Assembly (NCBI RefSeq): GCF_007747655.1
Contig: NZ_CP036274.1
Location: forward strand, 5,518,001-5,582,000
Direction of reading: 5' to 3'
DNA from: Anatilimnocola aggregata
GTDB taxonomy: Bacteria; Planctomycetota; Planctomycetia; Pirellulales; Pirellulaceae
Length of the DNA: 64,000 bases
Part shown: piece after piece, positions 28,941 to 59,097 of the stretch
How positions within the stretch are numbered: the first letter of the stretch is position 1
How the letters are laid out: each line of letters opens with the position of its first letter
The notes under the pieces: generated by a model
The model's input: the letters and a program-made list of their open reading frames with translations, nothing else
Told to the model about the DNA's origin: nothing
Database searches by the model: none
Made by a program: the position numbers and the translations under genes

Positions 28941-28960
28941 CTGAACTCCGGTGAGTTCAG
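28941..28960 (-). terminator. Hairpin just past aroC
   Basis: A perfect 8-bp stem with a four-base loop (CTGAACTC / GAGTTCAG) lies 12 bases beyond the aroC stop. On the minus strand a TTTTT occurs only about 15 bases later, so this is a weak or processing-type terminator at best. Confidence 0.4.
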
Positions 28961-28971
28961 CTACTTTTCAG

Positions 28972-42826: not shown

Positions 42827-42840
42827 AAAATATCCGTGCG

Positions 42841-45287: not shown

Positions 45288-45339
45288 AAACAATTTGCAG
45301 TGCTAAGTACTCTAGTCTGCTGGTAAGTCAGAAACTAGG

Positions 45340-45369
45340 TTTTGAATCCAGCGCATCTGCCATTCCGCC
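45340..45369 (-). other. tRNA-Leu(CAA)-like 30-base segment, candidate attachment core
   Basis: On the minus strand this segment reads GGCGGAATGGCAGATGCGC, then continues as TGGATTCAAAA. This is the D-arm, the 5' anticodon stem and the CAA anticodon loop of a bacterial tRNA-Leu, by comparison with tRNA-Leu sequences I know. The match begins at the D-arm (no acceptor stem) and stops in the anticodon loop. It is therefore not a working tRNA but has the form of the shared core of a tRNA-targeted integration site. It lies next to the tandem tyrosine recombinases, as attachment sites usually do. No complete tRNA-Leu is in the window. Confidence 0.6.
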
Positions 45370-45498
45370 GTTCGCTGAACGACACTGCTGCAGCACCGAT
45401 GCTCACGCATCGTTCGAAATGTCGATCGTCTGCGCCGAAGCGCAGGCGACCGTTATGTTCAATTCGTCAGTAGTTGAAGTTCCTTGGAAACGAAAAAT

Positions 45499-45520
45499 GG
45501 CCCGCCTCAGCAGGCGGGCC
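45499..45520 (-). terminator. Intrinsic terminator for the minus-strand gene at 45657-45992
   Basis: A perfect 9-bp GC-rich stem (GGCCCGCCT / AGGCGGGCC, loop of four) is followed on the minus strand by ATTTTTCGTTTCC. It lies about 135 bases past the stop of the small minus-strand gene. The rest of the gap 45288-45656 holds the tRNA-like segment and no credible gene. Confidence 0.7.
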
Positions 45521-45656
45521 TGGGTGGAGTTTATCCCTGCTCCGGTCAAGATTCCAGTGCCTTCATTAGGCCGAAAATGCAATTGCATCAGCAGATCGCG
45601 GTCGACAACCAAGCGATGACTGCAGAGTGGCATCACTGATTTTCGACACCAATGAA

Positions 45657-45992
45657 TCAGCCGAGAATTTGCGCTAGGGCGCTGATCGCTGACTTGGCGG
45701 CGTCAATTCCACCCAGCTGATCCACGAGTTTTTTGGCCTTTACGAGTTGCTCGATGCTGCTTCCCCCGCTCGCGGTTGCCGGCACCTTGCCTGGCTTACG
45801 TCCCCGTTTACCAATCACTCCGCCTTTTCGTTTGGCGTTAGAGAGGACGGTACTCACAAATTGCGGAGTTACTTCCATTCCAGTCTTACTCAGAGCTTCA
45901 GCGATTTCCTTCGGAGATGCGGAGGGGTTGGTTACCTTGTAGTTGCGAATTGCAAGTGATTTGTTTGGGCCTGATTTGGCTTTCTTGGCCAT
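45657..45992 (-). CDS. Small basic conserved-looking protein of the island
   Basis: The 111 residues are Lys-rich. The middle part (NPSASPKEIAEALSKTGMEV, then TPQFVSTVLSNAKRKGG) looks like a helix-turn-helix, and a basic linker (VIGKRGRKPGKVP) and a C-terminal amphipathic helix follow. The protein may bind DNA. The start is well supported by AGGAG eight bases upstream. It points toward the recombinases and ends in its own terminator (45499-45520), so it is a single-gene unit. I know similar small proteins from planctomycete genomes but not a function. Confidence 0.65.
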   Translation of the reverse strand: MAKKAKSGPNKSLAIRNYKVTNPSASPKEIAEALSKTGMEVTPQFVSTVLSNAKRKGGVIGKRGRKPGKVPATASGGSSIEQLVKAKKLVDQLGGIDAAKSAISALAQILG

Positions 45993-46867
45993 CCGACGGA
46001 CTCCTGGCTGGCTTGTAAAGGAAATTCCTCAAGCAATTGAGCCTAGTTGCGGTCTCAGAATTCGTCAAATCATTGTCCAGGAGAGGTTTACCGATTTATG
46101 CAATGACAGGGGCTGACATACCCTGCGGGCAACAACCTCAGATCAAGATAGCTGGTCAGGATTGGAGTAGTGGTTCAGTTTGAAATCTGATTTTCCGAAA
46201 CGGCTCCACTGCGCGTTAGGCTAATCCTCACCCAACTGCCCAGACGTTGGAATTGTGCCGTCGCCGACCAAAGTTCTTGCGGAACGCCGGTACTTGAGTT
46301 GATTCACGTGACCCGATTGATCAACGAAATTGACAGGTCGGTTGCGAGGAACGAGGCAGCCTCCGATCATTGGCTAGGCCCATTCGAGGGATCGTAGCTT
46401 GATCAGCTCCAAAGAAAAAATAATAGCGAGCCTCTCAAGTCGATCGCGATGAGTTCGAAGTTGTTTTGCTGCCAATCCCGGCATCGCTAAGGTGAAGCGA
46501 ACCCTTGGCGAAGACAAACTGGCCGGCCGTCTACACGATCTCCTACCAAACTGGCGCTCAGCTAAATTTTCTCGTATTTTGCGTCATTATATAGTGAGAA
46601 CATAGTTAGATTTCAGCTTCGGTGATGCCGCCGACGTAGTAATCCGGCTGTGCCACCCGCCTGATACCTTCGCACCGTGTCGCCTCTCGTCGGCGCGAGC
46701 CACTCTGCAAATAGATGGCGCCATCTAGCCCCAGAATTCAGCGTTTCTCTTGCGGCGCGCACGAAAGAATCGGCTGTGGTAGGCTCGTTGAATCGCGCAT
46801 ACAGCCGAGGCAGTAGCCGCTGCTAAATTATCGACGAAATTGTGGCATAAGAAGATGAGAACGGAAA
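45993..46867. other. 875-base gap without an intact gene
   Basis: No start-to-stop frame of credible length is present. The region around 46400-46620 is more AT-rich than its surroundings, with words such as AAAAAATAATAG and TCATTATATAGTGAG. At 46613-46822 a minus-strand frame is open for 69 codons without a start and has protein-like composition (listed separately as a possible remnant). The gap may hold the promoter of the 45657-45992 gene and debris from past insertions. Confidence 0.4.
46613..46822 (-). pseudogene. Possible decayed gene fragment
   Basis: The frame is bounded by a stop at 46823-46825 and ends with TGA at 46613-46615, with no usable start. Its translation contains QRLLPRLYARFNEPTTADSF followed by a VRAARETLNSG stretch, which reads like real protein, while the last ~20 residues become Arg-rich and look out of frame. 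A neighbouring frame ends in YYVGGITEAEI, as if a frameshift divided the 3' end. The evidence is composition only; I recognise no family. Confidence 0.2.
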
Positions 46868-47176
46868 TTAGCTGTTGGTCGGCCTTCCTAGCGGAACCGT
46901 AATTCCAGGCAGCGCGTGGGAGGGCACTGGCAGTTGGCGCTGCGGCACACGTTTGGGCGTGACTCGCATGAGTTCCAACAAACGGTCGACCTCTTTCGCG
47001 GGGATTCTGATCCGCCCTTGTCCTTTCGCCCCTCCTTGCAGGTAGTTGATGTTGACCCTCTGACCGCGGATTTCCAGCAGCCCATAGTCTGACTGTCCGA
47101 GCCAGTCGTAGAGCGTCGCGACGGAAATCCCCAGCCTGTGGGCAGCTTCGGCTGGTTTGAAGAAGTTATCATCCAC
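46868..47176 (-). CDS. MerR/excisionase-like helix-turn-helix protein
   Basis: The 102-residue protein begins with an excisionase-type helix-turn-helix (FFKPAEAAHRLGISVATLYD, then WLGQSDYGLL). A wing follows in which GRIRIPAKEVDRLLELM is typical of DNA-binding proteins that place a helix after a RIP motif. The C-terminus is Pro-rich. Such proteins act as recombination directionality factors or small regulators; being in an island with recombinases fits either. The start codon has no clear Shine-Dalgarno. The gene lies 96 bases downstream of the 487-residue hypothetical gene on the same strand and may share its transcript. Confidence 0.75.
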   Translation of the reverse strand: MDDNFFKPAEAAHRLGISVATLYDWLGQSDYGLLEIRGQRVNINYLQGGAKGQGRIRIPAKEVDRLLELMRVTPKRVPQRQLPVPSHALPGITVPLGRPTNS

Positions 47177-47272
47177 GGTCGGATCGCCCCATTGGTGATG
47201 TAAGGTTTCACCAAGAGGGGAAATCCGGTCAACGTGACTTAGAGCTTCTGTTCGTAATATCCAGTTTTGCGG

Positions 47273-48736
47273 TTACCGTTCTTCGCCACGAAGAACCTTC
47301 GTCGCCTCGGCCCAAGCGATCTTTACCGTTCGTGACCTGCCAGGATGAGAGGGGCAAAGACCGCATGCTTCGAGCGGTTCGAACTGCTTAAACACATCGA
47401 GCTCGATGGTGAATTTCAACGGGTTCCCACAATAGCGGCAGTTGTAGTTCCGGCGAGTCGCGACTTGCTGGGCCAGCTCGGTCAGGCGGGCGAGCAGCTT
47501 GATCTTATCGTCAGCACTGAGCTGCGGTTTGGGGCTCGAATCAGCCGACTTTGGCTGCTGATAGACGGGCTTCCGGCGGATCCGCTTAGCGCTCTTGTCG
47601 AGGGTGCGGCGCGCGTTGACCATTTCGCCGTAAATGCAAAATAAACGATGAAGGGCGCCAATCAGTCGGCGGTCATTAGGCGCTTCCCACAGCCGAGGGA
47701 CCAGTGGTGCGATCAGTGGCGCACGATCCATGAGCATCAACAGAGGCAGACCACCGAACTCCGGTTGAGGAAGGTAGATCTTTTCGAAGTGTTCCTTCGC
47801 AACGGGAGTTAAATTTTCAGCCAAGCACCGTTGGACCCAACCCATACAGGCCTGAATGTAGGTCGCGACTGCGAAATGCCCGGCCCAGCCAAGCTCTACC
47901 AAACCGGCTTTCACGAGTTCAGGCGACATCCGTTTGGCAGTTCGTTTCAGCATCCCGGTCAGAGCCTTGATCACGTTGCTGTGTGGGCCCGAAAACCATG
48001 CGTCGAATGCCCCGCCGGAATCATCGCGGTGATTCGCCAGAGCCTCACACAAACAAGCGTCAAACTCAGCTTTGTCGCTCACTGGAAGACTAACGTCAAG
48101 CCGCTCGAACAGCGCTGCATGGACGAGCTCTCTAACCTGTTCGTCGGTGCAAGAAAGAGGATCCTGCAATGCCGCAGCGCACAAGCCATAGGCGATTGCG
48201 ACCTTGTTGCTTGGATGCTGGTCGCCATCATCCCGCGCAGCATCCGATCCGAGGGCAAGTAAACGTTTGATGGAGCCGACCTCATCGGGCAAGATTGTGC
48301 GACTGATACTACCCGCCAATACGCCCGGACGAATTGCTAGATCCGCTGCCGAAGAGAAACTGCGCCGTTGCCGCAGGCTGCGGCAACGATACCAGCGATA
48401 GCACAGAACGTGTACTTGATCGGCGAAGGACTGGTCGGCCGAAACAGGTTTGACGTTCGCGAGAATGGCCGGCCCGAACGCGCAACACTGGCTAATAAAA
48501 GCCTGCGCTTGAACCCGCGGCACCACTCGCAAATTGCCAGCCGAATCGCTGACTACGAGAAACTCTAGGGGGAGGTGGGCGGGATCATTGGTGGTGACAT
48601 CTGCGGGCAATGTCCACTGCATCACCTGCACGGGTTGCAATTTCGGCAACCGCGTTAACCGTTCCTCACCGACGGTTGACCACCGCACTTTGATTTCACC
48701 GTACGCCGAATTGCACTGGGAAATATCAACGCTCAT
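47273..48736 (-). CDS. Hypothetical 487-residue protein with C-terminal Cys pairs
   Basis: I recognise no family. From the ATG at 48736 (GAGG eight bases upstream) the protein is soluble and mixed helical. A region around residues 85-120 is basic with aromatic residues (VLCYRWYRCRSLRQRRSFSS). A C-terminal zinc-binding-like unit has two CxxC pairs (NCRYCGNPLKFTIE and ACGLCPSHPGRSR). The arrangement suggests a nucleic-acid-linked role, which is inference. The gene is divergent from the eleven-gene operon, so the 327-base gap at 48737-49063 should hold promoters for both. Confidence 0.6.
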   Translation of the reverse strand: MSVDISQCNSAYGEIKVRWSTVGEERLTRLPKLQPVQVMQWTLPADVTTNDPAHLPLEFLVVSDSAGNLRVVPRVQAQAFISQCCAFGPAILANVKPVSADQSFADQVHVLCYRWYRCRSLRQRRSFSSAADLAIRPGVLAGSISRTILPDEVGSIKRLLALGSDAARDDGDQHPSNKVAIAYGLCAAALQDPLSCTDEQVRELVHAALFERLDVSLPVSDKAEFDACLCEALANHRDDSGGAFDAWFSGPHSNVIKALTGMLKRTAKRMSPELVKAGLVELGWAGHFAVATYIQACMGWVQRCLAENLTPVAKEHFEKIYLPQPEFGGLPLLMLMDRAPLIAPLVPRLWEAPNDRRLIGALHRLFCIYGEMVNARRTLDKSAKRIRRKPVYQQPKSADSSPKPQLSADDKIKLLARLTELAQQVATRRNYNCRYCGNPLKFTIELDVFKQFEPLEACGLCPSHPGRSRTVKIAWAEATKVLRGEER

Positions 48737-49063
48737 CGGAAGACCTCTGAAATGGAGTAGCTGAAGGGCTGGCCGGTAAAGCGGTCGAGCCCAGGGGAAT
48801 CGCAAACGCTTCTGAAATCCTGTCCGGTTTGAGTATCTCCGAACAAGAGCGGAATTATTTTCTCTTCACGTTGCACTAAATCGCGGCAACACCGCACAGT
48901 TTCGGAACGCTCGCAAAGTACGGCCAGATAAAGAGATGCGTCGCCTTGGCGTCCTCGCTCGCGACGTTATCGATCATCAAAAACAACCTGTTTCAGAGCG
49001 ATCCGCAAATCAACGGACCACGGTGTCGTGGCCCCGGATCGACTGATCTTTCCAGGAGCAACC
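48737..49063. promoter_or_regulatory. Divergent intergenic region upstream of the island operon
   Basis: The region lies between the minus-strand 487-residue gene and the plus-strand operon. A small hairpin (CCACG-GTGT-CGTGG, 49018-49031) sits about 33 bases before the first operon ATG, inside its probable 5' leader. A Shine-Dalgarno AGGAG follows at about 49054. I could not assign -35/-10 boxes with confidence. Confidence 0.4.
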
Positions 49064-49258
49064 ATGTTTCGATCCGAAGTGCTGGGAGCCTTTGCGCTCC
49101 TCGCGCTGCTGCTCACGTTTGCGCTCGCCCGAGAAATTCGGCTGCGGCGAGCCTTGCAGCGATTACTTGTCCGAATGTTTAAGCCTAGGAGAACAAACCA
49201 TGAATCGACGACTGATCCCGCTCGGGATGAGTCTGCCGCTCTTGATGAGCGGCTGTAG
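49064..49258 (+). CDS. Small single-span membrane protein (first operon gene)
   Basis: The 64 residues have one hydrophobic span near the N-terminus (VLGAFALLALLLTFALA), then a strongly basic stretch (REIRLRRALQRLLVRMFKPR), then an acidic tail. The ATG at 49064 has AGGAG five bases upstream. Its last 59 bases overlap the start of the lipoprotein gene in another frame. The protein is likely inserted in the membrane with the basic part inside the cytoplasm. I know no family. It is the first gene of the operon that ends with the serine recombinase. Confidence 0.6.
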   Translation: MFRSEVLGAFALLALLLTFALAREIRLRRALQRLLVRMFKPRRTNHESTTDPARDESAALDERL

Positions 49259-49757
49259 TCCCCCTGGCGATCAGCGCCTCGCGCAGTTCGCCGAACTGAG
49301 CGTGCAACAACAAGCTCGGCAGAATGAGGCGATGGCCACCAACGTTCAAGAGTTGACGCGCGCCACCGATGACCTCGTCAAAGCAGACGCGGCAGCGCGA
49401 CAGGAGTTGCTCACTGCTAGTCGCGAGCAGCAGTCGGCCTTTCGTCAGGCCACCGCTCAAATCGATCAGTCCAGGCAACTTCTCGATCGAGAACGACAAG
49501 CTTTGGCAGAGGAACGGGCGCGTGAGACGCGGTCCGTGACCGTGCTCAGCGCTCTGCTGGTTCTGGCACCGGTACTGTTCCCTTTCGCGCTGATTGCCTA
49601 CCTGCTGTATTTAGCCCGCCAACCCGATCCCGACGATGCGACGCTGACCGAAGTCCTGCTCTCGGAATTGACCAGCGACGCACCGCGGCTGTTCACAGTG
49701 AGCACCGAACCGGCCCGGCTAGAACGAGACGATTTGACCGACAGTCCAGAGGAGTGA
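49200..49757 (+). CDS. Lipoprotein with coiled coil and a C-terminal membrane span
   Basis: From the ATG at 49200 (AGGAG eight bases upstream) the protein has 185 residues. The N-terminus is a lipoprotein signal (LGMSLPLLMSGC, Cys19). Residues ~25-110 are highly charged and Gln/Ala-rich and should form a long coiled coil (QELTRATDDLVKADAAARQE). A membrane span follows (VTVLSALLVLAPVLFPFALI, about 113-135) and then a ~48-residue acidic tail. Being anchored at both ends of the coiled coil is unusual. If both signals work, the tail is cytoplasmic and could touch the AAA ATPase. No family recognised. Confidence 0.65.
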   Translation: MNRRLIPLGMSLPLLMSGCSPPGDQRLAQFAELSVQQQARQNEAMATNVQELTRATDDLVKADAAARQELLTASREQQSAFRQATAQIDQSRQLLDRERQALAEERARETRSVTVLSALLVLAPVLFPFALIAYLLYLARQPDPDDATLTEVLLSELTSDAPRLFTVSTEPARLERDDLTDSPEE

Positions 49758-49814
49758 CCAAGCTAGTCCTGTAAACGTTAACACAACCGTTCATTTTTCA
49801 AGGAGCCTTATTTC

Positions 49815-50177
49815 ATGTCCCACATTGTGCAGATTCAGACTCAGGTGCGCGATCCAGTCGCGATCGCCAGTGCCTGCGAGCGGCTACGCTTGTCTCCACC
49901 GATCCACCGCACCGTGCAGCTCTTCAGCCGCCAGGAGACGGGCCTCGCCGTCGAACTCCCCGGATGGCGCTACCCGGTCGTCTGCCAACTCGCCTCAGGC
50001 GAAGTCCGGTACGACAACTACAACGGTCGCTGGGGCGCGCAAGCCGAACTCGACCGGCTGTTGCAAACTTACGCCATCGAAAAAACTAAACTCGAAGCGC
50101 GCCGCAAAGGACATCGCGTCACCGAGCAGTCGTTACAAGATGGTTCCGTCAAACTCGTTATTCATGTGGGAGCCTAA
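49815..50177 (+). CDS. DUF1257 (Ycf35-like) protein
   Basis: The 120 residues match the DUF1257/Ycf35 pattern: the start MSHIVQIQTQVRDPVAIASA, the central GVRYDN-type Gly turn (SGEVRYDNYNGRWGAQAE), the helix LLQTYAIEKTKLEARRKGH, and the C-terminal strand DGSVKLVIHVGA. Ycf35 is encoded in many plastid and cyanobacterial genomes and has no proven function. AAGGAG lies nine bases before the ATG. The next gene, DUF2997, starts four bases past the stop. DUF1257, DUF2997 and a Ycf46-type ATPase side by side are a recurrent set. Confidence 0.85.
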   Translation: MSHIVQIQTQVRDPVAIASACERLRLSPPIHRTVQLFSRQETGLAVELPGWRYPVVCQLASGEVRYDNYNGRWGAQAELDRLLQTYAIEKTKLEARRKGHRVTEQSLQDGSVKLVIHVGA

Positions 50178-50181
50178 GCCG

Positions 50182-50376
50182 ATGCCGATCATTGAAGTCA
50201 TCGTCTCTCCCCAGGGAGCCACGCAGGTCACCACCCGTGGTTTCGCGGGAAACAGCTGCCAGGCTGCCAGCCAGTCGCTCGAAGCGGCCCTCGGCCTCCG
50301 CCAAGCCGAACAGCTCACGCCGGAGTTTTATCAGCAGCAGGCTACCAACCTCGCGCAGTCTCAAGGGCAACGTTAG
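50182..50376 (+). CDS. DUF2997 protein
   Basis: The 64 residues fit the short DUF2997 family: a first strand (IIEVIVSPQGATQVTTRGF), a conserved GNSC turn, and a helix ending in LG (QSLEAALGLRQAE). GGAG lies nine bases upstream, inside the end of the DUF1257 gene, and the four-base gap suggests coupled translation. DUF2997 proteins accompany DUF1257 proteins in cyanobacteria and planctomycetes, and the two may form one complex. That is inference from neighbourhood. Confidence 0.8.
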   Translation: MPIIEVIVSPQGATQVTTRGFAGNSCQAASQSLEAALGLRQAEQLTPEFYQQQATNLAQSQGQR

Positions 50377-50397
50377 CCCTCTCCTGGCGGCCACGCA

Positions 50398-50418
50398 CAG
50401 ATGCGCTGAGCGCATCTG
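50398..50418 (+). terminator. Terminator-like hairpin between DUF2997 and the ATPase
   Basis: A perfect 9-bp stem (CAGATGCGC / GCGCATCTG, loop TGA) is followed by TTTCTAC. It lies 22 bases past the DUF2997 stop and 53 bases before the ATPase start. The T tract is weak, so attenuation or mRNA processing is more likely than full termination. Confidence 0.5.
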
Positions 50419-50470
50419 TTTCTACTCGCAGCCGTTTTTCTCAACAACCTACGTTAATAAGGAACCGACG

Positions 50471-51952
50471 ATGTCGCTTACCCAGCGATTGGAAGAACTC
50501 GTGCGCGCTTGCTTCACAGGAATCTGGATCGAGTCGCATGAACATGAAGAAGCCCTCCTGGAGATTGCCCAACTCTGCCACGCGCAGAGTTGGCGATTCG
50601 CTGTCTGGGATATCCAGCAAGGGTTGAAGCTCGCTGGCCTAGAGGCGGCACCGCTCGCCGCCGATCCCCTCGCGGCCATTCAAGTGGCCGGTACGCTGCC
50701 AGCATCCGACCAGCCCACGATTGTCGTGCTAGTCAACTTTCACCGGTTTCTCCAAGGAGCGGAGACGGTGCAAGCTTTGGCCCATCAGGTAGTGAGCGGT
50801 AAGCAGTCGCGCACTTCAATGGTCATCCTGGCGCATCAAGTAGCTCTGCCGCCCGAACTCGAAAAGCAGTTTGTCGTAGTGGAGCATGCCTTGCCGGGCC
50901 GTCGGCAACTGGCGGAGATCGCCCGCGGGATCGCCACGCAAGAGGATGAACTTCCACCCGAAATGGAATTCGAGCGGGTGCTCGACGCCGCGCTCGGTCT
51001 GACTCGTTACGAGGCCGAAGGTGCGTTTTCCCTGTCGCTCATTCGCCATGGTCGCTTGTCGGCCGAGGTGCTGTGGGAACAGAAAGCCCAGCTGCTCAAG
51101 AAGAGTGGTCTCCTCACCTTGCACCGGGGTGGGGAATCGTTCGCGCAGCTCGGCGGGCTGGAGTCCTTGAAAGCCTTTTGTCTGCGGGCCATGCGCCGGC
51201 AAGGGGAAGCTAATCCCCTGCTGCGGCCGCGGGGCGTGCTCTTGTTATCGCCACCTGGTTGCGGCAAAAGCCAGTTTGCCAAGGCCTTGGGCCGTGAGAC
51301 AGGCCGGCCAACGCTGGTCCTGGACTTGGGAGCCATGCTCGGCAGTCTGGTTGGCGAGTCGGAGCGCAATCTGCGGCAAGCCTTGCAGGTGGTCGATGCC
51401 ATGGCGCCCTGCGTCTTGTTTCTTGATGAATTAGAGAAAGGACTCGCGGGAGTCTCTGGCAGCGGCGACTCGGGAGTTTCGGCCAGGCTCTTTGGCCAGT
51501 TGTTGGTCTGGTTGAACGACCATACCAGCGACGTATTCTTCGTCGGGACCTGCAACGATGTCAGTCGGCTACCACCTGAGTTTGCGCGGGCCGAACGCTT
51601 TGATGGGCTGGTCTTCATCGACCTCCCCAATGCAACGCAGCGCCAGCAGATCTGGGAACTCTATCTGGCGACGTTCGGGCTCGATCCGCAGCAGGCTCGT
51701 CCCTGTGATGAGCAGTGGACGGGCGCAGAGGTCCGCGCTTGCTGCCGCTTGGCGGCCTTACTCGATGTTCCCCTGACTGTGGCTGCCCAGAACATTGCTC
51801 CGATCGCGGTCACCGCAGCGGAGTCGGTGGAACGGTTGCGGACGTGGGCCAGCGGCCGCTGCCTTGCCGCCGATCAACCAGGAATCTACGAGCACGGAGC
51901 CAGTCTTACTCCGGCGCGGCGTAAGGTCAGTCGGGCGGCCCAGCAGAACTAA
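50471..51952 (+). CDS. Ycf46-like AAA+ ATPase
   Basis: The 493-residue protein has a ~230-residue N-terminal domain (FTGIWIESHEHEEALLEIAQ) and a C-terminal AAA+ domain. Walker A is SPPGCGKS at 260-267. Walker B is CVLFLDELEKG, with Asp319-Glu320. Sensor 1 is VFFVGTCNDVSRLPPEFARA, and an Arg in the ERFDGLVFIDLP segment serves as finger. The N-terminal part and the MLGSLVGESERNLRQAL stretch match the plastid/cyanobacterial Ycf46 type. AAGGA lies eight bases upstream of the ATG. The enzyme should use ATP to remodel a protein partner, presumably among the other operon products; no target is known. Confidence 0.85.
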   Translation: MSLTQRLEELVRACFTGIWIESHEHEEALLEIAQLCHAQSWRFAVWDIQQGLKLAGLEAAPLAADPLAAIQVAGTLPASDQPTIVVLVNFHRFLQGAETVQALAHQVVSGKQSRTSMVILAHQVALPPELEKQFVVVEHALPGRRQLAEIARGIATQEDELPPEMEFERVLDAALGLTRYEAEGAFSLSLIRHGRLSAEVLWEQKAQLLKKSGLLTLHRGGESFAQLGGLESLKAFCLRAMRRQGEANPLLRPRGVLLLSPPGCGKSQFAKALGRETGRPTLVLDLGAMLGSLVGESERNLRQALQVVDAMAPCVLFLDELEKGLAGVSGSGDSGVSARLFGQLLVWLNDHTSDVFFVGTCNDVSRLPPEFARAERFDGLVFIDLPNATQRQQIWELYLATFGLDPQQARPCDEQWTGAEVRACCRLAALLDVPLTVAAQNIAPIAVTAAESVERLRTWASGRCLAADQPGIYEHGASLTPARRKVSRAAQQN

Positions 51953-51960
51953 TTTTATTT

Positions 51961-52000
51961 CGAGGCCAGTGCGACAGGTGCGCACGACCTCGTCGTTTTT
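51961..52000 (+). terminator. First of two hairpins after the ATPase gene
   Basis: A two-part stem (CGAGG with CCTCG outside, GTGCG with CGCAC inside) starts nine bases past the ATPase stop and is followed by TCGTTTTT. The form is that of an intrinsic terminator. Confidence 0.55.
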
Positions 52001-52009
52001 ACTCACGTT

Positions 52010-52046
52010 GCCGAGGGGCCAAACGACAGTCGTTTGGCCTCTCGGC
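52010..52046 (+). terminator. Second, stronger hairpin after the ATPase gene
   Basis: A 17-bp stem with one G-U pair (GCCGAGGGGCCAAACGA with TCGTTTGGCCTCTCGGC, loop CAG) is followed by CTTTCTTGTCC. It lies directly after the first hairpin and 43 bases before the next start codon. Together the two should stop or slow a large share of transcripts unless they are read through. Confidence 0.65.
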
Positions 52047-52088
52047 CTTTCTTGTCCTTCTCATTTTCGAAAGTTCCTTGGAGGTCCT

Positions 52089-53048
52089 ATGACCATGTCT
52101 GTTGCTGATCGAGTTTCAACTCCTCTGACCGGTAATCTGGTAGATCCCATGGCTGACCGCTTACGAGCGGCCATGGCCGCCGCCCGTGTCTCTTTTACCT
52201 GGTTCGGATCCCGCAAGTCGCTCACAGCCGAGCAACAGTCGCAGGCTGCCGATACCTTCGACGCCGAGAAAGAGTTTCTGTCGGCGCGCAAGAAGCTGAT
52301 CGATACCACCCATCCGGCCATGAAGGCGGTGACTGCCCTGCGCGGTCAGATTGTGCAGTACTGGCGCCGCGTTTCACTCCCCTTTCCGGAACCAGGTATC
52401 CGGTTGATTCGCCGCGCGGACATTGCGGCGTTCAATGTGCAGCTGACTTCGTTGAAAGGGGAATTGGGAGCGACTGTCGAACAGCTGGAAGAGAGCTATG
52501 CAGAACTCAAACGCTCGGCCCGTCAGCGGCTCGGTCGTCTCTTCAATGCCAGCGACTATCCGGTCACCTTGCGGGGCATGTTCGATGTGAACTGGGATTG
52601 GCCGTCGATTGATCCACCACAGTATCTGCAGCAACTGACTCCCGACCTGTTTCAACAGGAATGCACTCGGGTGCAGGCTCGTTTTACTGAAGCGATTCAA
52701 CTGGCGGAGCAAGCTTTCTTCGAAGAGTTTTCCAAGCTGCTGGAGCATTTAACCGAACGACTCACGGGAGACGTCGATGGCAAACCCAAAGTCTTCCGCG
52801 ACTCTGCAATCGAGAATCTGCGCGAGTTTTTCCAGCGATTCCAGTCGCTGAATGTCGGTTCGCACCAGCAATTGGAGGAACTGGTCTCGCAGGCGCAGCG
52901 GATCGTGCGCGGGGTCGGCCCGCAAAAGCTCCGCGACGATCGGGGTCTGCGTCAGGAAGTTGCCTCCCAACTTTCAGGTGTGCAGAGCGTGCTCGATGGC
53001 CTGATGGTCGATCGTCCTCGTCGCAATCTGGTCCGTCGGCCGCATTAG
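52089..53048 (+). CDS. Hypothetical 319-residue helical protein
   Basis: From the ATG at 52089 (GGAGG five bases upstream) the protein is almost all alpha-helical, with long charged segments such as FNVQLTSLKGELGATVEQLE and AIQLAEQAFFEEFSKLLEHL. It loosely resembles DUF3150-type proteins of phages and plasmids, which are also encoded next to AAA ATPases, but I cannot confirm this. No catalytic motif is visible. The C-terminus is basic (LMVDRPRRNLVRRPH). The next gene follows after 13 bases. It is a plausible substrate or adaptor for the Ycf46-like ATPase. Confidence 0.65.
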   Translation: MTMSVADRVSTPLTGNLVDPMADRLRAAMAAARVSFTWFGSRKSLTAEQQSQAADTFDAEKEFLSARKKLIDTTHPAMKAVTALRGQIVQYWRRVSLPFPEPGIRLIRRADIAAFNVQLTSLKGELGATVEQLEESYAELKRSARQRLGRLFNASDYPVTLRGMFDVNWDWPSIDPPQYLQQLTPDLFQQECTRVQARFTEAIQLAEQAFFEEFSKLLEHLTERLTGDVDGKPKVFRDSAIENLREFFQRFQSLNVGSHQQLEELVSQAQRIVRGVGPQKLRDDRGLRQEVASQLSGVQSVLDGLMVDRPRRNLVRRPH

Positions 53049-53061
53049 AAGGGAAGCACTG

Positions 53062-53307
53062 ATGCAACTCGTTATTCAAGTCGACGGCTCGATTCGTGGT
53101 CTCTATGACGAGACCATTGATCTAGCCACCTTGGGACAACTGGCCATCATGCGGGGCTCGCACGTCGAGCCGACTGATGATGGCCAGTGGCTGGCTGACC
53201 TGTCCCCGGTTCACGGTCCCCAGCTGGGACCGTTTGCCGCGCGTTCACTCGCCCTCAGCGCGGAACGCGAATGGTTAGAGCGGCACTGGCTCGAACCAGG
53301 CACCTAG
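53062..53307 (+). CDS. Small acidic protein of the island operon
   Basis: The 81 residues form a compact protein with IQVDGSIRGLYDETIDLATL, a Gly-His turn (IMRGSHVEPTDDGQWLADL) and a C-terminal helix rich in Trp and His (AEREWLERHWLEPG). AGGGA lies eight bases upstream. It starts 13 bases after the previous stop, so the two genes are a tight pair. I recall near-identical small proteins in planctomycete genomes in the same setting but no name or activity. No membrane segment. Confidence 0.65.
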   Translation: MQLVIQVDGSIRGLYDETIDLATLGQLAIMRGSHVEPTDDGQWLADLSPVHGPQLGPFAARSLALSAEREWLERHWLEPGT

Positions 53308-53318
53308 CCCGTCTTCTG

Positions 53319-53341
53319 CCCGGGGCAACGTTTGCCGCGGG
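53319..53341 (+). terminator. Short hairpin after the 81-residue gene
   Basis: CCCG-GG-GCAA pairs with TTGCC-GCGGG around a small loop (nine pairs, one mismatch). It is followed by ACTTCGTTCTCTGTTT, which is T-rich but broken. It is the weakest of the operon's hairpins. Confidence 0.4.
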
Positions 53342-53414
53342 ACTTCGTTCTCTGTTTCCAGTCCCGCGCTACCGCTGCGCGCATGCGCTCACCCATTTCC
53401 AGGAGATTCTGCTG

Positions 53415-53621
53415 ATGACTCAATGCGAACTCGAAACGGCTATTTCCCAAACTACCGGCGAAGACCTGCATGAAATCCGCCGCCGAGGATTTTCGATCGT
53501 GCCCGAGTTCGAAGTTGATTTCGACTCCGAACCGTCGTCCCCGCAGTTCGTCGACTGGGATGCCTTGGAGCGCGAGCGCCGGCATCCCGACTCGCTCCTC
53601 CCCAGCGGTTGGGGATTCTAG
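53415..53621 (+). CDS. Small acidic protein of the island operon
   Basis: The 68 residues start with a helix (CELETAISQTTGEDLHEIRR), continue with RRGFSIVPEFEVDFDSEP, and end in SLLPSGWGF. AGGAG lies nine bases before the ATG. The segment GEDLHEIRRRGFSI suggests a small fold with exposed hydrophobic surface, perhaps an adaptor. No family recognised. It sits between two terminator-like hairpins. Confidence 0.6.
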   Translation: MTQCELETAISQTTGEDLHEIRRRGFSIVPEFEVDFDSEPSSPQFVDWDALERERRHPDSLLPSGWGF

Positions 53622-53642
53622 TGCGTGGTTGTTTTCTTACTC

Positions 53643-53680
53643 GGGCGCCACTTCGCTCCGGCGAGGTGGCCCCTTTTCTT
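53643..53680 (+). terminator. Terminator-like hairpin before the clamp gene
   Basis: GCCACTTCGC pairs with GCGAGGTGGC (10 bp, loop TCCG), with three more G-C pairs outside a one-base bulge. It is followed by TTTTCTTTGTCTTG. This is a good intrinsic terminator, 21 bases past the preceding stop and about 34 bases before the clamp ATG. Confidence 0.65.
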
Positions 53681-53713
53681 TGTCTTGTTGTTTCTCACAA
53701 AGGAGAGTTAGCC

Positions 53714-54850
53714 ATGTTACGTTTACACCGTTCAGCCATTTATTACGTCCGCCCGCTGCTGCGGGCGGCACTGGAACTTACGCCCCATAAGAACCAAACC
53801 CCAGTGACATTCGTTGCGACCGCTGCTGGGCTGCTCGTACGCGCTCAGAACGAGAATGTTGCGTTTGAATTAGTGGTTGAGGGAGCAGGTAGCGGTGATC
53901 CCATTTCAGTGCCCTACGTTACCTTGGCTAAGGTCGAAGGCCGGCAGCACGAACCGTTGGAATTGGCGGCAACGCTAGAAGGCAATGTGTTTCGCTGGTC
54001 CGAGGCCGGGATCCCGCAAGTGTTGTCGGCACCAGCGCTGGCAACCGATGCCTGGCCGAGTCTGCCAGCTCAGGATTGCGCGAACGACGCTGAGTTGCTG
54101 ACGGCACTTCGGGAGGCGGCCAACACGACAGATACAGCGTCGTTGCGTTACTCGCTGGGCTGTATTCGTTTTCGGTGTGCCGACGGACAACTGGCCGCCA
54201 CCGATGGCCGCCAGGCCATCCTGCTTACCGGGTTTCGTTTCCCGTGGAGCGGAGATGTGCTGGCGCGTCGTTGCCCAGCATTCTCCAAACTACGACTCGC
54301 CGCGACCGACGAACTGCACGTGGGACGGACGGAGGATTGGCTAGTACTCCACGCTCCACGCTGGACGCTCTGGCTGAAGATTCAGCATGAAGCGCGCTTT
54401 CCGGATGTCGATTCGCAGATTCCGGCTCGCGAGCAGGCCGATACCACGTTGTCGCTGGCCGAAGGTGACGCCACATTCATCCTGCAAAAGCTCAAGCACT
54501 TGCCAGGCGGCTCTGATCAGAACGGACCGATCACCATTGACTTGAATGGCTCTGTCGCGGTCCGCGCGCAGGATGAATCAAGTTCAGTCACGGAACTGCT
54601 ACTGTCGCGCTCGGAGCGCAGCGGCGCGGAAGTCCGCTGCTGCAGCGATCGTCGCTATCTGCAACGCGCCGTGCAGCTCGGTTTTCGCGAGATCTTATTT
54701 CGTGGGGTGGCCGCGCCGCTGTTTTGCAGGGAATCGCGGCGAGCGTATGTCTGGGCGCTCCTCAGTGCTGAGCACTGCCTGAAGCACAACGAGCAGGCTA
54801 CTCGAATCGCCTCGCCTCGCGCGACAACCGCAGCTAGTTCAGCGGGCTAA
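53714..54850 (+). CDS. DnaN-like sliding-clamp-fold protein
   Basis: From the ATG at 53714 (AAAGGAG upstream) the protein has 378 residues, close to a bacterial beta clamp. Clamp-like features are the middle-domain pattern RYSLGCIRFRCADGQLAATD with GRQAILLTGF. There is also a C-terminal domain that starts with CCSDRRYLQRAVQLGFREIL and ends in AAPLFCRESRRAYVWALLS, where beta clamps have their final strands and MPMRL. It differs strongly from ordinary DnaN and lacks that C-terminal motif. It may form a ring or half ring that loads on DNA for the element. The assignment rests on pattern and length, not on a search. Confidence 0.6.
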   Translation: MLRLHRSAIYYVRPLLRAALELTPHKNQTPVTFVATAAGLLVRAQNENVAFELVVEGAGSGDPISVPYVTLAKVEGRQHEPLELAATLEGNVFRWSEAGIPQVLSAPALATDAWPSLPAQDCANDAELLTALREAANTTDTASLRYSLGCIRFRCADGQLAATDGRQAILLTGFRFPWSGDVLARRCPAFSKLRLAATDELHVGRTEDWLVLHAPRWTLWLKIQHEARFPDVDSQIPAREQADTTLSLAEGDATFILQKLKHLPGGSDQNGPITIDLNGSVAVRAQDESSSVTELLLSRSERSGAEVRCCSDRRYLQRAVQLGFREILFRGVAAPLFCRESRRAYVWALLSAEHCLKHNEQATRIASPRATTAASSAG

Positions 54851-54887
54851 CTCCTGAATCTGGCTCCGGCTCGTGACGCCTTTTTGG

Positions 54888-54918
54888 CTCGCAACGTCTG
54901 CGGATGCTAGCGAGTTTT
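54888..54918 (+). terminator. Terminator-like hairpin after the clamp gene
   Basis: CTCGC pairs with GCGAG, with an inner CGTC/GATG stem and a TGCG loop, followed directly by TTTTCCTCC. It lies 37 bases past the clamp stop. Confidence 0.55.
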
Positions 54919-54946
54919 CCTCCCTAACAAAACCAAGGAATGAATC

Positions 54947-55189
54947 ATGCCGCATCCACCACCTGGTTCGCCGGAACAATCCAGCGAGCCACCGACCAAT
55001 TCGCTGCGGGAGCGTCTCCTCGCAATCGCGACCGGAATTCCCTTACGCATCGAGAGCAATCAACAAAACCTGCTGGAACTCACGCGAGAGATCCAGGCGG
55101 CACGACGTAGGTCGCTGCTGGCGCACATCGCGGAGGTCATTGCTCGTTGCCATCTTCAATCGATAAAGAAAAGGGATCCCGAACAATGA
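54947..55189 (+). CDS. Small basic protein coupled to the serine recombinase
   Basis: The 80 residues have a Pro/Ser-rich start (PHPPPGSPEQSSEPPTN) and then one long basic amphipathic helix (LLELTREIQAARRRSLLAHI). AAGGA lies upstream of the ATG. The stop overlaps the recombinase start by four bases (ATGA at 55186-55189), so the two are made together. It could be an accessory or directionality factor for the recombinase, which is inference from position. No family recognised. Confidence 0.6.
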   Translation: MPHPPPGSPEQSSEPPTNSLRERLLAIATGIPLRIESNQQNLLELTREIQAARRRSLLAHIAEVIARCHLQSIKKRDPEQ

Positions 55190-57405
55190 ATCAGTCTTCT
55201 TATAACCCATTGAGGGCGTACCAGATTGCCATCTATGCCCGGATGTCATCGGCAGCTCAGAATGAACGTTCGCCGGAGTCGCAGATCATCGAAATCCAGG
55301 AAAGGCTGCGGCGCGCTAGCTACCCGTGGGTTGTCGTCGGCACGTATATCGACCGAGCAATCTCGGGCCGCTACGACGAAAAGCGCCCGGAATACCAACG
55401 GATGCTCCGCGATATTCGGTCGCGCGTGATTACGGTTGATCTCGTCGTGGTCGACACCTACGATCGCTTCTCGCGTTCGCGGCGTGGCGGCGAGTACCGG
55501 GCGAAGCTCGAGCGGCAGGGCGTGCTGGTCGTGACCGCCAACAATAACTTCGCCGACCCCACAACCGTCGCCGGTCAAGTCATGACGGCCTTAGACGAGG
55601 CTCGTTCGCGCGAAGAAGGCCGCGTGAAGGGGCATCAGGTGCGGCGCGGTAAAGCCGACGCCATTCGCCAGAAGCAGTGGGCCGGTGGTCCGGTCCCCCT
55701 GGGGATGCGGCTGCGGCCGGTCATGAAAAACGTCGCCGGGGTAGAAACCGTAGCGCACAACGTGCTCGAACCTGATCCGCGAACGCAGTGGGTCGTCGAG
55801 GAGATGTTTCGCCTTGCCGATGAACATGGCTTCGGTGCGACACGCGTGGCCGTCACGCTGAATGCCGACTCGCGCGTTACCGATCTGGTCGGCAAACTGT
55901 CGGGGGCGACCGTTGCAGAGATCCTGAAGCGGCGGATTTATGTGGGCGAGTTCATCTGGAACAAGCAGACGGGCGACATCGTCCAGGATGTGCGGGTGCT
56001 GCACGACGTCCCCGAATGCGACTGGCTGCGTGTGCCCGAGTATTGTGCTGCCATCGTCGACAAAGATCGCTGGGAGCGGGTCAACGACCTGCGCAAGGCA
56101 CGGAATCGTCGCAGGGTCGCTGCGGAGACCAGCAATTCTGGGATTGCGGGGCTGTGTGCTCCTGGCATTGCCCTCCGCTATCCGTTGTCAGGCTTGGTGC
56201 TCTGCGCCGAGTGTGGCCGCGCGATGACCGCTTCCTCCGGGATCCCCTACGTCGACAAGAACGGGAACAAACGGCGGTACGTCTATTACGGCTGCGCAGG
56301 GTACAAGCAGGGGAAAATCTGCGTGAATGATCGCTTCGTTCCGGAACAGTGGTTGCGCGAAGAAGCCTATGGCATCATTCGCGCGGGGTTGGGCTTGGCG
56401 GATTGCAGCACCGATTCTCCGGCGGTGCAGGAATTGGTGCAGCTCACCCAAGCGGCGTTCGCGCGGCAGCGGGCCGACCAGCCCAATCGGCTTCCGAGCC
56501 TCCAAGCAGCGCAGAAGGCTGTGGAGGAACAGTCGCAGGGTTGGGTGATGTCGCTCGGTAATCGCGATCTGTCGGCGGCCGTCCGCGACATGCTCGGAAA
56601 GCAGCTAAACGAAGCGCAAACGCAACTGAGTCGGTTGACCGCGGAAATCGATTCGCTGGCAGCCAGCGAGCGGATCGAAGCGGAGGTGTTGAATGCAGAA
56701 GTGATCGTGGATCGGCTGCAGCATCTCGCCGAGGCGATGCTGAGCGCGAATCCTTCGGCGACAAGTCTCGTGCTCGCGCAGCACATCGAGGGCATCCATT
56801 GCTTCCGGGATGGCCGGTGCGAAATCAAACTTTGCAAGCTCGGCGCCCTCGCGGGCGATCTGGACTTCATTCCATTGGAATGGACTGAGTCGGAATCGCA
56901 GAGAACGGCTGCCGATGGAAGTGCAAGCTTCGACCCTCGCCGCCGGACCAAGCGTGATGCTCGTGCGGTCATTCACGACGACGAGGTGCTCGATGCGGCC
57001 AACGCGTTCGCGGTGGACCCTCATCGGTTTGCCGGGTTGGGGCAGGAGTTGTTCGTGTCGCATGTGTTGACGATCCCCGCTCCCACGTCCTGGGCTCGGC
57101 GGAATGCGTCAGCGGTTGCCGCGCATCGGCAAGAGCATTACGCTTCAATGGCCGAGTTGGCCACCCACTTCAATGTGAGTATCCCCACAATTCGTCAAGC
57201 GCTGCGTGAAGCGGAGAAAACCGAGGGAGGCACTCTAACTGGCAAGCTGCCGGCAAGGCCCAATAAGCGCAACTGGGCTCGGCTTAACGCCGCACTGGTC
57301 GCTGAGTTCATGCAGTTGGAGGGCTCGACGGTCAAAACCGCGGCAGCGCACTTCAGCAAGTCCGAACCGACGATTCTGAAGGCCCTGCGGTACGCGAACG
57401 GCTAA
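55186..57405 (+). CDS. Large serine recombinase
   Basis: The 739-residue site-specific recombinase starts with the resolvase catalytic domain: Ser21 in IAIYARMSSAAQ, then the YDRFSRSRRGGEYRAKLERQ segment with catalytic Args. The recombinase domain (GPVPLGMRLRP, VAEILKRRIYVGEFIWNK) follows. Then come a zinc ribbon (VLCAECGRAMTASSG, YYGCAGYKQGKICVNDRF) and a coiled coil (LNEAQTQLSRLTAEIDSLAA). The last ~110 residues hold two helix-turn-helix-like repeats (ATHFNVSIPTIRQALREAEK and AAHFSKSEPTILKALRYANG), an extension beyond the usual protein. The start is fixed by the ATGA overlap. It is the last gene of the operon and should integrate or excise an element through short attachment sites that I could not locate. 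Confidence 0.93.
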   Translation: MNQSSYNPLRAYQIAIYARMSSAAQNERSPESQIIEIQERLRRASYPWVVVGTYIDRAISGRYDEKRPEYQRMLRDIRSRVITVDLVVVDTYDRFSRSRRGGEYRAKLERQGVLVVTANNNFADPTTVAGQVMTALDEARSREEGRVKGHQVRRGKADAIRQKQWAGGPVPLGMRLRPVMKNVAGVETVAHNVLEPDPRTQWVVEEMFRLADEHGFGATRVAVTLNADSRVTDLVGKLSGATVAEILKRRIYVGEFIWNKQTGDIVQDVRVLHDVPECDWLRVPEYCAAIVDKDRWERVNDLRKARNRRRVAAETSNSGIAGLCAPGIALRYPLSGLVLCAECGRAMTASSGIPYVDKNGNKRRYVYYGCAGYKQGKICVNDRFVPEQWLREEAYGIIRAGLGLADCSTDSPAVQELVQLTQAAFARQRADQPNRLPSLQAAQKAVEEQSQGWVMSLGNRDLSAAVRDMLGKQLNEAQTQLSRLTAEIDSLAASERIEAEVLNAEVIVDRLQHLAEAMLSANPSATSLVLAQHIEGIHCFRDGRCEIKLCKLGALAGDLDFIPLEWTESESQRTAADGSASFDPRRRTKRDARAVIHDDEVLDAANAFAVDPHRFAGLGQELFVSHVLTIPAPTSWARRNASAVAAHRQEHYASMAELATHFNVSIPTIRQALREAEKTEGGTLTGKLPARPNKRNWARLNAALVAEFMQLEGSTVKTAAAHFSKSEPTILKALRYANG

Positions 57406-57432
57406 GCAATCATCAGTTGCAGGAGATTCGCA

Positions 57433-57470
57433 AAGCCGGCCGCCTGCGGGCGGCCGGCTTCCTTCTTTTT
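57433..57470 (+). terminator. Strong intrinsic terminator closing the island operon
   Basis: A perfect 12-bp stem (AAGCCGGCCGCC / GGCGGCCGGCTT, loop TGCG) is followed by CCTTCTTTTT. It lies 27 bases past the recombinase stop. It is the cleanest terminator in the window and marks the operon's end. The following bases to 57701 contain no gene that I can see. Confidence 0.9.
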
Positions 57471-57701
57471 AGCTATTGAGATCCGCAGCTGAGTCAACAG
57501 CGAGGAAACAAATGTCTCACGAGCCGTTCCCGAGCGTGGAAAATCCGAGAGGCCTCGGAAGTAGCCAGCCTGCCTAATGGGAGAGTCACGGACAAGCTCT
57601 AGTCATTCGCCGATCTGGACAACGAAGGGATCGAGTGCGGTTTACTAGCTACGGCTCCATGACTCTGGCAGGGCTCTTTCGTTCGCGTGTAGAATAGAAC
57701 G

Positions 57702-58311: not shown

Positions 58312-59094
58312 CTAACGGCCAGGCAGCAAAACTTGTTTCAGAACGGCTCCCGCATGCGGCACGGCCGCCTGGTAGTTTTCGCCGAGGAGGGCGGCGAGGG
58401 TGGCTGCGATTTGACTCTGGGTCACGCGTTCGCAGTTTGTTCGTTCGCCCAGAGCAGCTGTATCCGGTCCCAGAAATGCCATCCACATGTCTTCGGCCCC
58501 TTCGATCTTTTGGCCATGATTTTTCCAATCGATTAGTCCCGAGCCGCGACCGTGATCGGTCGAGATGATGAACGTGGTCTTGCCTCGATACTGTTCCAGT
58601 GACTGCATCGTCTCCCAAAGTCGCTGGATGTACTGATCGACGGCATGGGCCGACGTTAATAAGCTGTCGTAGCGGCCGGCATGCCCCCAGGCATCCGTTT
58701 CGAGAAAGCCAATGAACATCACGCGTGGCTGATGTCGCAACAGATGCTCGCGCGCTGCCTGATAGAGAAACGAATCGATGACTTCCGCCGAATTGGGTCG
58801 AGTGGTATCTGCGATCAATTCGTCGAGCAGTTGCTGCTTGGGGTTCGGCTCTGGCTCTGGCAGGGACTCCCAGCCTCCCATGACCGGAAAGCCGCATCGT
58901 TCGCAGTTAATGATGTAGGGAGTGAAATGCCAAGCGCTAAAGGCGGCAACCTTGCCAGCAAAGGCGGGCTTGCGATGAAGCCAAACAGACTGCCCATCAG
59001 GCGATAGCCACGCTAATAATGCACCCATTTCTTGAGCAGATGCTACAATAGATGCTTCCCCTGATCGCTTCGAATTTTCCGCCTGATGAGGCAT
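58312..59094 (-). pseudogene. 5'-truncated alkaline-phosphatase-superfamily gene
   Basis: The C-terminal two thirds of this family are well preserved: KPAFAGKVAAFSAWHFTPYI, the metal ligands in DAWGHAGRYD and ISTDHGRGSGLIDWKNHG, and the end VTQSQIAATLAALLGENYQA. The N-terminal part, which should hold the first metal-binding Asp and the Thr/Ser nucleophile, is absent. Upstream of about 58990 the reading frame no longer looks like the family, and beyond 59094 it runs antisense to the neighbouring cytochrome gene. The protein could start at the ATG at 59094 (260 residues) but would lack its catalytic residue. A deletion or insertion at this point is the likely cause. Confidence 0.65.
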
Positions 59095-59097
59095 AGG

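What the first reader, a model, noticed from the sequence alone, without database searches (positions are those of the whole stretch)
49064..57405. Candidate undescribed system: recombinase-linked Ycf35/DUF2997/Ycf46/clamp operon
Eleven genes in one direction join a membrane pair, a DUF1257-DUF2997-AAA module, a helical protein that may be its partner, two small proteins, a DnaN-like clamp and a serine recombinase. Every member has a strong ribosome site, two junctions are ATGA-coupled or nearly so, and a single strong terminator closes the set. It could be a mobile unit that carries its own DNA-clamping and protein-remodelling machinery, perhaps for replication, defence or element control.
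Basis: partly seen in the sequence, partly recalled or inferred. Interest (0 to 1): 0.85.

Follow-up and report, generated by a model that had tools for sequence, protein, structure and literature searches.

The report
Mobile AAA-ATPase module in Planctomycetes
A small set of genes built around a protein-remodelling motor travels as a unit on integrating elements of planctomycete bacteria, on large phages and on a plasmid, and the parts attached to it can differ; what it does is unknown, but its company suggests that it looks after the DNA of the mobile element that carries it.

Summary
The element also has two tyrosine recombinases and a variable region. Its heart is a module: DUF1257-like, DUF2997, Ycf46-type AAA, a DUF3150-fold protein and a small protein, kept in order in most planctomycete regions examined. 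The same five genes occur together in tailed-phage contigs (ten of 197-205 kb) and, AAA first, on a Nitrospirota plasmid. What surrounds the module varies: the mobility genes, and the downstream arm, which is either the DnaN-like clamp (as here; 16 of 49) or a JAB gene, nearly always with an E1 gene (20 of 49); none of 49 has both, 13 have neither. So this is a mobile-element-borne AAA+ module with alternative arms. Most likely it serves the element's own DNA (inferred, not shown); defence is the main rival. The open-access searches run showed no description of it.

The parts
42677..57483 (.). integrated element as defined by homology to the second copy (edges approximate; no attachment repeats found)
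   Evidence: blastn to the copy at G000:C1:2,933,504-2,953,841 (coordinates converted by me) at 89-92%; no direct repeat above chance
41333..42928 (-). sulfatase frame whose 5' part (from 42,677 up) is shared with copy 2 and whose 3' part is not
   Evidence: first 109 residues of the frame 70% identical beside copy 2 (the real start is probably residue 35), residues 1-424 44%
42841..44139 (+). tyrosine recombinase 1
   Evidence: PF00589 E 2.7e-7; 96% in copy 2
44136..45287 (+). tyrosine recombinase 2
   Evidence: PF00589 E 2.3e-11; 92% in copy 2
45288..49053 (.). variable region: DNA differs from copy 2 except the excisionase-like gene; the 510-aa gene recurs there at 27% protein identity
46868..47176 (-). 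excisionase/MerR-like HTH protein
   Evidence: HTH_17 E 5e-7; found in 7 fetched regions, the window included
47273..48805 (-). 510-aa protein of no recognised family, also in copies C2, R1, R2
   Evidence: no match in NCBIfam, PHROGs, Pfam or PADLOC
49064..49258 (+). small membrane protein m1
49200..49757 (+). lipoprotein/coiled-coil/TM protein
49815..50177 (+). DUF1257 (Ycf35)-like protein, core
   Evidence: sub-threshold Pfam match; aligned with 25 phage relatives at 48-58%
50182..50376 (+). DUF2997 protein, core
   Evidence: PF11211 E 5.3e-16
50471..51952 (+). Ycf46-type AAA ATPase, core
52010..52046 (+). strong terminator-like hairpin inside the set
52089..53048 (+). helical protein with DUF3150 fold, core
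   Evidence: Foldseek to a phage DUF3150 protein E 1.4e-14, TM 0.75; 33% identical to Manganitrophus plasmid proteins, one of which passes PF11348
53062..53307 (+). small protein s2, core
   Evidence: 51% identical homologue follows DUF3150 on a Nitrospirota plasmid; 42-51% in 15 phage relatives
53415..53621 (+). small protein s3 (core in bacteria; 0 of 51 phage loci)
53647..53670 (+). terminator-like hairpin before the clamp
53714..54850 (+). DnaN-like sliding-clamp protein (alternative arm)
54947..55189 (+). small protein s4, ATGA-overlapping the recombinase
55186..57405 (+). large serine recombinase with HTH-like C-terminal extension
   Evidence: PF00239, PF07508, PF13408; 91% in copy 2
57433..57460 (+). 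terminator-like hairpin, 23 nt before the right edge

Best explanation
The locus is an integrated mobile element whose core is a transferable AAA+ module that serves mobile elements. Proposed working: the Ycf46-type ATPase forms a ring that unfolds or pulls apart a nucleoprotein or replication target; the DUF3150-fold helical protein is its dedicated partner or adaptor; the DUF1257-like, DUF2997 and s2 proteins are subunits of the same machine. An alternative arm chooses the target: in this copy a DnaN-like clamp that would bring the machine to replicating DNA or act as the element's own processivity factor, in other copies an E1/JAB set with an E2/RING-looking protein that would tag proteins. 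The benefit is to the element: establishment, copying or persistence of its DNA, or takeover of host replication proteins. Shown: mobility, co-occurrence of the core, exclusion and change of arms, relatives on phages and plasmids. Inferred: every biochemical step and the benefit.
For: Second copy at 89-92% identity. Close AAA relatives (above about 430 bits, my count of the listing) in 27 of 98 genomes, the window's own included, often several per genome. Core kept together: DUF1257-like in 64 of 69 and DUF2997 in 64 of 69 regions with over 1.5 kb upstream, DUF3150-fold protein in 47 of 54, s2 in 47 of 54, s3 in 43 of 54 with over 9 kb downstream. Phages: of 51 loci (42 clusters once near-duplicates are merged) DUF1257-like and DUF2997 in 50 each, AAA in 51, DUF3150-fold protein of 290 aa or more in 40, s2 in 36, a terminase-family frame in 46, confirmed as GpA type for the one scanned. 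Starting from the terminase: of 79 loci, 41 have 7 kb or more upstream; 22 of these carry DUF1257-like, DUF2997, AAA and DUF3150-fold genes together, 19 have none of them in that stretch (many are the same contigs as). Nitrospirota plasmid: JAB, unnamed gene, AAA, DUF1257, DUF2997, DUF3150, s2 homologue, later ParB. On 4 of 4 proteobacterial plasmids opened, a homologue of the helical protein is directly followed by a VWA-like gene, with an ATPase gene directly before it in 3 and 3.6 kb upstream in 1; T4SS genes follow in 2, PRTRC genes precede in 1, ParB lies near in 1 (homology). Arms: 16 clamp, 20 JAB, 0 both, 13 neither of 49, with at least 6 changes between clamp and JAB on the AAA tree.
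Against: No function was measured. E1 and JAB genes, an E2/RING-looking protein, a PD-(D/E)XK nuclease and a weakly GajA-like protein near some copies also suit a conflict system. In 38 of 65 regions with over 4 kb upstream I saw no serine recombinase, TniB or TniQ within 9.5 kb, most having only about 5 kb to look at. The module is not seen upstream of the terminase in 19 of 41 phage loci. The proteobacterial cases have another ATPase type and a VWA partner, so shared function is assumed. The phages' hosts are unknown; their terminase was not found in 98 relatives.
Confidence: 0.45

Rival explanations
1. It is an anti-phage or anti-plasmid defence system carried as cargo, with alternative sensing or effector arms; phages carry it to keep out competitors.
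For: E1 (ThiF, 83.9 bits, cut-off 28.1) and JAB-like genes (Prok-JAB 24.5 bits, just under its cut-off of 25; JAMM pattern in 15 of 16) in some copies; nuclease and weakly GajA-like neighbours; several copies per genome; one relative element (R2) carries a separate CBASS cyclase and SAVED-HNH effector. PADLOC lists the excisionase-like gene as weakly mad1-like (1.7e-5) and Cas6-like (3.5e-4).
Against: Of the core, PADLOC matches only the generic AAA domain (IetA, E 4.9e-19) and gives three weak matches for the helical protein (best E 0.006); DUF1257-like, DUF2997, s2 and s3 match nothing. In 22 phage loci the module lies at one place near the terminase, on plasmids relatives lie with ParB, PRTRC or T4SS genes. 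No nuclease or toxin-like effector was recognised in this copy.
Confidence: 0.25
2. It is an addiction or incompatibility module in which the AAA protein is an antitoxin-like factor, as in the IetAS / SgiAT pairs of plasmids and SGI1.
For: The AAA domain matches IetA models; a paper describes the SGI1 antitoxin as an AAA+ ATPase related to the SpoVK/Ycf46/Vps4 superfamily (PMC10954446, passages).
Against: Only residues 254-426 match; no subtilisin-like protease was recognised among the operon's proteins.
Confidence: 0.12
3. It is a counter-defence or host-takeover module that strips host proteins from incoming element DNA.
For: Shared by phages and integrating elements; a clamp arm could reach replication forks.
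Against: No anti-defence family was named in the scans; not separable from the best explanation without experiments.
Confidence: 0.13
4. The genes are unrelated neighbours gathered by chance in a recombination hotspot.
For: Mobility genes and arms do vary.
Against: The core recurs together in planctomycetes, phages and on a Nitrospirota plasmid.
Confidence: 0.03

Closest known systems
Module of ~200 kb tailed phages in IMG/VR (unnamed)
   Same: DUF1257-like, DUF2997, AAA, DUF3150-fold protein, s2 in one order, proteins about 40-64% identical
   Different: a beta-solenoid-like gene (YdcK repeat, below cut-off) lies before s2; no clamp, serine or tyrosine recombinase of this kind in the fetched flanks
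ATPase / DUF3150-like / VWA gene set of large plasmids
   Same: ATPase gene close to a homologue of the helical protein on mobile DNA
   Different: VWA/metallopeptidase (DUF2201) partner and another AAA type; no DUF1257 or DUF2997 listed beside it
PRTRC plasmid cassette
   Same: E1, JAB and Prok_Ub genes near such genes on plasmids; relatives of this element carry E1 and JAB
   Different: this copy has none of them; a relative's E1 scores 36.3 bits against the PRTRC_ThiF cut-off of 144.75
vWA-MoxR FtsH ternary conflict systems
   Same: AAA proteins with JAB, E1, RING and Ubl/E2 genes, also in planctomycetes (PMC7159879, passages)
   Different: no FtsH, VWA or caspase-like effector recognised here; the paper's text has no Ycf46 or DUF3150
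IetAS / SgiAT stability modules
   Same: Ycf46/SpoVK-group AAA on mobile elements
   Different: a subtilisin-like protease partner there, a DUF3150-fold protein here

Membership tests
DnaN sliding clamp superfamily | profile similarity to beta clamps | tested here: met
   24 best of 27 PDB matches of profile A1 are beta clamps, best E 5e-6; weak and remote
DnaN sliding clamp superfamily | ring-shaped dimer that slides on DNA | not testable with these tools
   no structure of the clamp was predicted
DUF3150 (PF11348) | Pfam match of the window protein itself | tested here: not met
   not among its matches at E up to 1
DUF3150 (PF11348) | same fold, homology through an intermediate | tested here: met
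DUF1257 (Ycf35) | Pfam gathering score | tested here: not met
   19.7 against 22.2 bits
DUF2997 | Pfam gathering score | tested here: met
   58.7 against 24.1 bits
PRTRC system | PRTRC-model proteins in the operon | tested here: not met
   none among ten window proteins scanned with NCBIfam; m1, s3, s4 and the tyrosine recombinases were not in that scan
Known anti-phage defence system | PADLOC models beyond generic domains, matched by the core | tested here: not met
   15 window proteins scanned: IetA for the AAA domain, weak matches for the helical and HTH proteins, none that makes a system
Integrative element | site-specific recombinase and more than one genomic copy | tested here: met
Integrative element | attachment-site repeats and an empty site | tested here: inconclusive
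   no repeat above chance; flanks not resolved in the one congener
Prophage of the ~200 kb phages | the phages' terminase in the host genome | tested here: not met
   0 of 98 genomes; the same query finds the gene in 3 of 3 phage records
Bacterial ubiquitin-like conjugation (in JAB-arm relatives) | E1, E2 and JAB by curated models | tested here: inconclusive
   E1 passes Pfam ThiF, JAB just misses; no E2 model matches any of 15 members, only an HPHV..CEG motif in 15 of 15

The most novel reading that the evidence does not exclude
A previously undescribed class of mobile-element machine: one AAA+/DUF3150 remodelling core, shared by integrating elements, large phages and plasmids, that takes either a DNA sliding clamp or a ubiquitin-like conjugation set as alternative targeting arm, so that mobile DNA uses a Cdc48-like motor aimed by clamp or by tag.
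Probability: 0.3. Interest if true: 0.88.

Novelty: new variant of a known kind. Interest (0 to 1): 0.68.

Why it matters
DUF1257, DUF2997 and DUF3150 have no known function in Pfam; this ties them to one AAA motor on three kinds of mobile DNA and gives an ordered gene set to test. The exclusive clamp and E1/JAB arms suggest two ways of aiming one machine. What was searched in open-access papers: DUF1257/DUF2997 occur in 3 papers, whose titles are about other things (one opened at one passage, a ferredoxin gene cluster); DUF3150 in none; Ycf46 with AAA in 10, of which I saw the titles and passages of one; in the wider searches only the listed titles were seen (15 of 729; 15 of 78; 8 of 8; 15 of 21; 12 of 180; 0 papers).

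Tried and rejected
Prophage reading: the phages' terminase is not found in 98 relatives; as control the query rings in 3 of 3 phage records. A PF06868 search of the own genome found nothing although DUF1257-like genes are there, because this branch lies below the threshold. Attachment repeats: longest shared strings of 8-10 nt, as in shuffles. Empty site: left and right flank match different places in the congener, and the gene right of the element (58,312-59,232) is itself short against a 437-aa relative. Fold searches of the DUF3150-fold and DUF1257-like models in PDB gave nothing at E 0.001 or better; a profile search of the former in PDB likewise (best 0.13). Mycobacteriophage Dylan: Foldseek lists a Dylan protein at 2.5e-3, but gp94, next to Dylan's AAA gene, gets 0.2% in hhalign; whether these are the same protein was not checked, and the link was dropped. 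The StbC match of the lipoprotein (17.6 of 100 bits) is not taken. The E2 reading of the F16 family rests on a motif in 15 of 15 members that I recognised from memory; no Pfam model for E2 matched any of 15, NCBIfam matched nothing in the one scanned; its cysteine-rich tail matches a RING domain weakly (E 0.004, next 0.07). The JAMM pattern (15 of 16) is recalled too. The chance value for 0 both (2e-5) assumes independent copies, which they are not. Dropped before the counts: four duplicate contigs (L180, L182, L186, L202) and 12 regions without an AAA frame of at least 330 aa and 150 bits, among them R1, which has the module with a cut AAA gene, and L213, which has a JAB/E1 arm; 75 of 91 regions kept. 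The tree is a quick search, 23 of its 68 inner branches open.


Full report
Observation. The eleven genes exist at 49,064-57,405 as described. Family scans identify DUF2997, an AAA ATPase and a large serine recombinase securely, DUF1257 only below its cut-off, and the clamp only by remote similarity. Two further strong terminator-like hairpins lie inside the set, so 'a single terminator' is wrong.

Boundaries. The genome is one 9.0 Mb contig. A second copy, at 2,933,504-2,953,841 by my conversion, matches the window at 42,677-45,277, 49,054-51,514 and 51,515-57,483 with 89-92% identity. Between 45.3 and 49.0 kb the DNA differs, except for an excisionase-like gene (70%); the 510-aa gene recurs there at 27% protein identity. 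The element thus starts with two tandem tyrosine recombinases beside the 5' part of a sulfatase gene and ends 78 nt after the serine recombinase. The tyrosine pair lies beside a sulfatase gene in 6 of 6 fetched loci (W, C2, R1, R2, R3, R6); a partial seventh match in G001 was not fetched. In four of the six (W, C2, R1, R2) the module lies downstream and the serine recombinase at the right; in R6 the serine recombinase precedes the module; in R3 no module was found in the stretch fetched. No attachment repeat stood out.

The core. In 75 planctomycete regions the genes around the AAA gene are mostly present: DUF1257-like 64 of 69, DUF2997 64 of 69, DUF3150-fold 47 of 54, s2 47 of 54, s3 43 of 54 (denominators: regions with enough DNA on that side); the order can be read. 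Close AAA relatives occur in 27 of 98 related genomes by my count, the own genome included. Over 246 genomes drawn from the phylum, 12 match the profile of the DUF3150-fold protein, one of them only in part, in three families. The model of the helical protein (mean pLDDT 78) matches phage DUF3150 proteins; Manganitrophus plasmid homologues (about 33%) reach the Pfam family. The DUF1257-like protein was modelled well (pLDDT 88) but has no solved relative at E 0.001.

Phages and plasmids. The AAA query found 51 IMG/VR loci, ten on contigs of 197-205 kb, with the same gene order; 46 hold a terminase-family frame. They fall into 42 clusters when near-duplicates are merged; none holds the clamp, s3 or the recombinases. 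From the terminase (best 80 of 82 relatives kept, 79 loci), 41 loci reach 7 kb or more upstream: 22 with the four genes together, 19 with none; of the other 38, six show the AAA gene. The eight phage AAA rows put into the tree form one clade apart from the bacterial ones (100). On a Candidatus Manganitrophus plasmid the order is JAB, unnamed gene, AAA, DUF1257, DUF2997, DUF3150, s2 homologue, later ParB; on another such plasmid a PRTRC protein C with Prok_Ub domain lies further on. Of 38 plasmid records with a homologue of the helical protein I opened six, two of them Manganitrophus; on the four proteobacterial ones a VWA-like gene follows directly, and an ATPase gene precedes directly in three and 3.6 kb upstream in one.

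Parts that vary. Of 49 copies with s2 and over 7 kb downstream, 16 have the clamp, 20 a JAB gene, none both, 13 neither. Of the 20 JAB copies, 19 also have E1 and the E2/RING-looking gene, G007_C1 lacks both; one clamp copy, G020_5442, has an E1-like frame. The JAB profile's best PDB match is an Rpn11-like proteasome subunit (E 3.2e-4). On the AAA tree clamp and JAB change at least 6 times; a clamp copy and a JAB copy, both with TniB/TniQ, are sisters (R11 and G071_C5, 99). Of 65 regions with over 4 kb upstream, 18 have a serine recombinase upstream, 5 TniB/TniQ upstream, 4 a serine recombinase downstream only, and 38 none of these.

Mechanism. I take the core to be one AAA+ remodelling machine with the DUF3150-fold protein as partner, aimed by an arm and serving the element. 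Co-occurrence, mobile settings and change of arms are shown; the machine, its target and its benefit are inferred. Defence is the chief rival. PADLOC, run on 15 window proteins, matches the generic AAA domain and gives weak matches to the helical protein, the excisionase-like gene (mad1 1.7e-5, Cas6 3.5e-4) and the recombinase's HTH part, nothing that makes a system; one relative element carries a separate CBASS. Introns of two kinds interrupt AAA genes (group II in bacterial copies, group I in phages), which fits a conserved gene but proves nothing.

Novelty. Parts and single associations are in databases; the ordered module, its sharing among three kinds of mobile DNA and the alternative arms did not show up in the open-access searches run (mostly titles seen). 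Papers seen in passages: PMC1779556, PMC7159879, PMC4284462, PMC10954446. Work on prokaryotic RING/E2 systems by Burroughs and colleagues is recalled and was not held. Subscription literature could not be searched.

Noticed in passing
G000:C1 about 2,939,455-2,941,867 (L047, copy 2): The second copy's AAA gene is interrupted by a 2,420-nt group II intron with a reverse-transcriptase frame (Rfam RF00029). L051 has a group II intron at the same codon; L052 begins with the same intron sequence there, and no second half of its AAA gene was found.
   Followed up: partly
L129, L130, L134; similar breaks in L131, L133, L135, L137: In phage contigs the AAA gene is interrupted right after the Walker B aspartate by a group I intron (Rfam RF00028 in the three scanned), another site and kind than in the bacterial copies.
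   Followed up: partly
42,663-42,928 and six tyrosine-recombinase loci: The tandem tyrosine recombinases sit beside the 5' end of a sulfatase gene in 6 of 6 fetched loci; the element seems to bring its own sulfatase start, and the genome offers many targets (117 match segments).
   Followed up: partly
58,312-59,232: The gene right of the element looks N-terminally shortened against a 437-aa relative in a congener (L078).
   Followed up: partly
G001:C1 element R2, composite 38,159-41,263 and 28,145-29,050: Cargo with a CBASS cyclase and SAVED-HNH effector, an adjacent E2-like frame and an ArdC-like frame (both by eye).
   Followed up: partly
G000:C1:1,590-15,126 (L050): A copy of the module with TniB/TniQ lies about 3 kb from a gene that matches the clamp profile strongly and looks like the host dnaN.
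   Followed up: no
45,657-45,992: A profile started from this small HTH-looking protein of the variable region matches frames in 49 of 51 phage loci after iteration; drift of the profile was not excluded.
   Followed up: no
L117:12,816-13,835: The phage module has a beta-solenoid-like gene (YdcK repeat, below cut-off) between the DUF3150-fold gene and s2, absent from the window copy.
   Followed up: no
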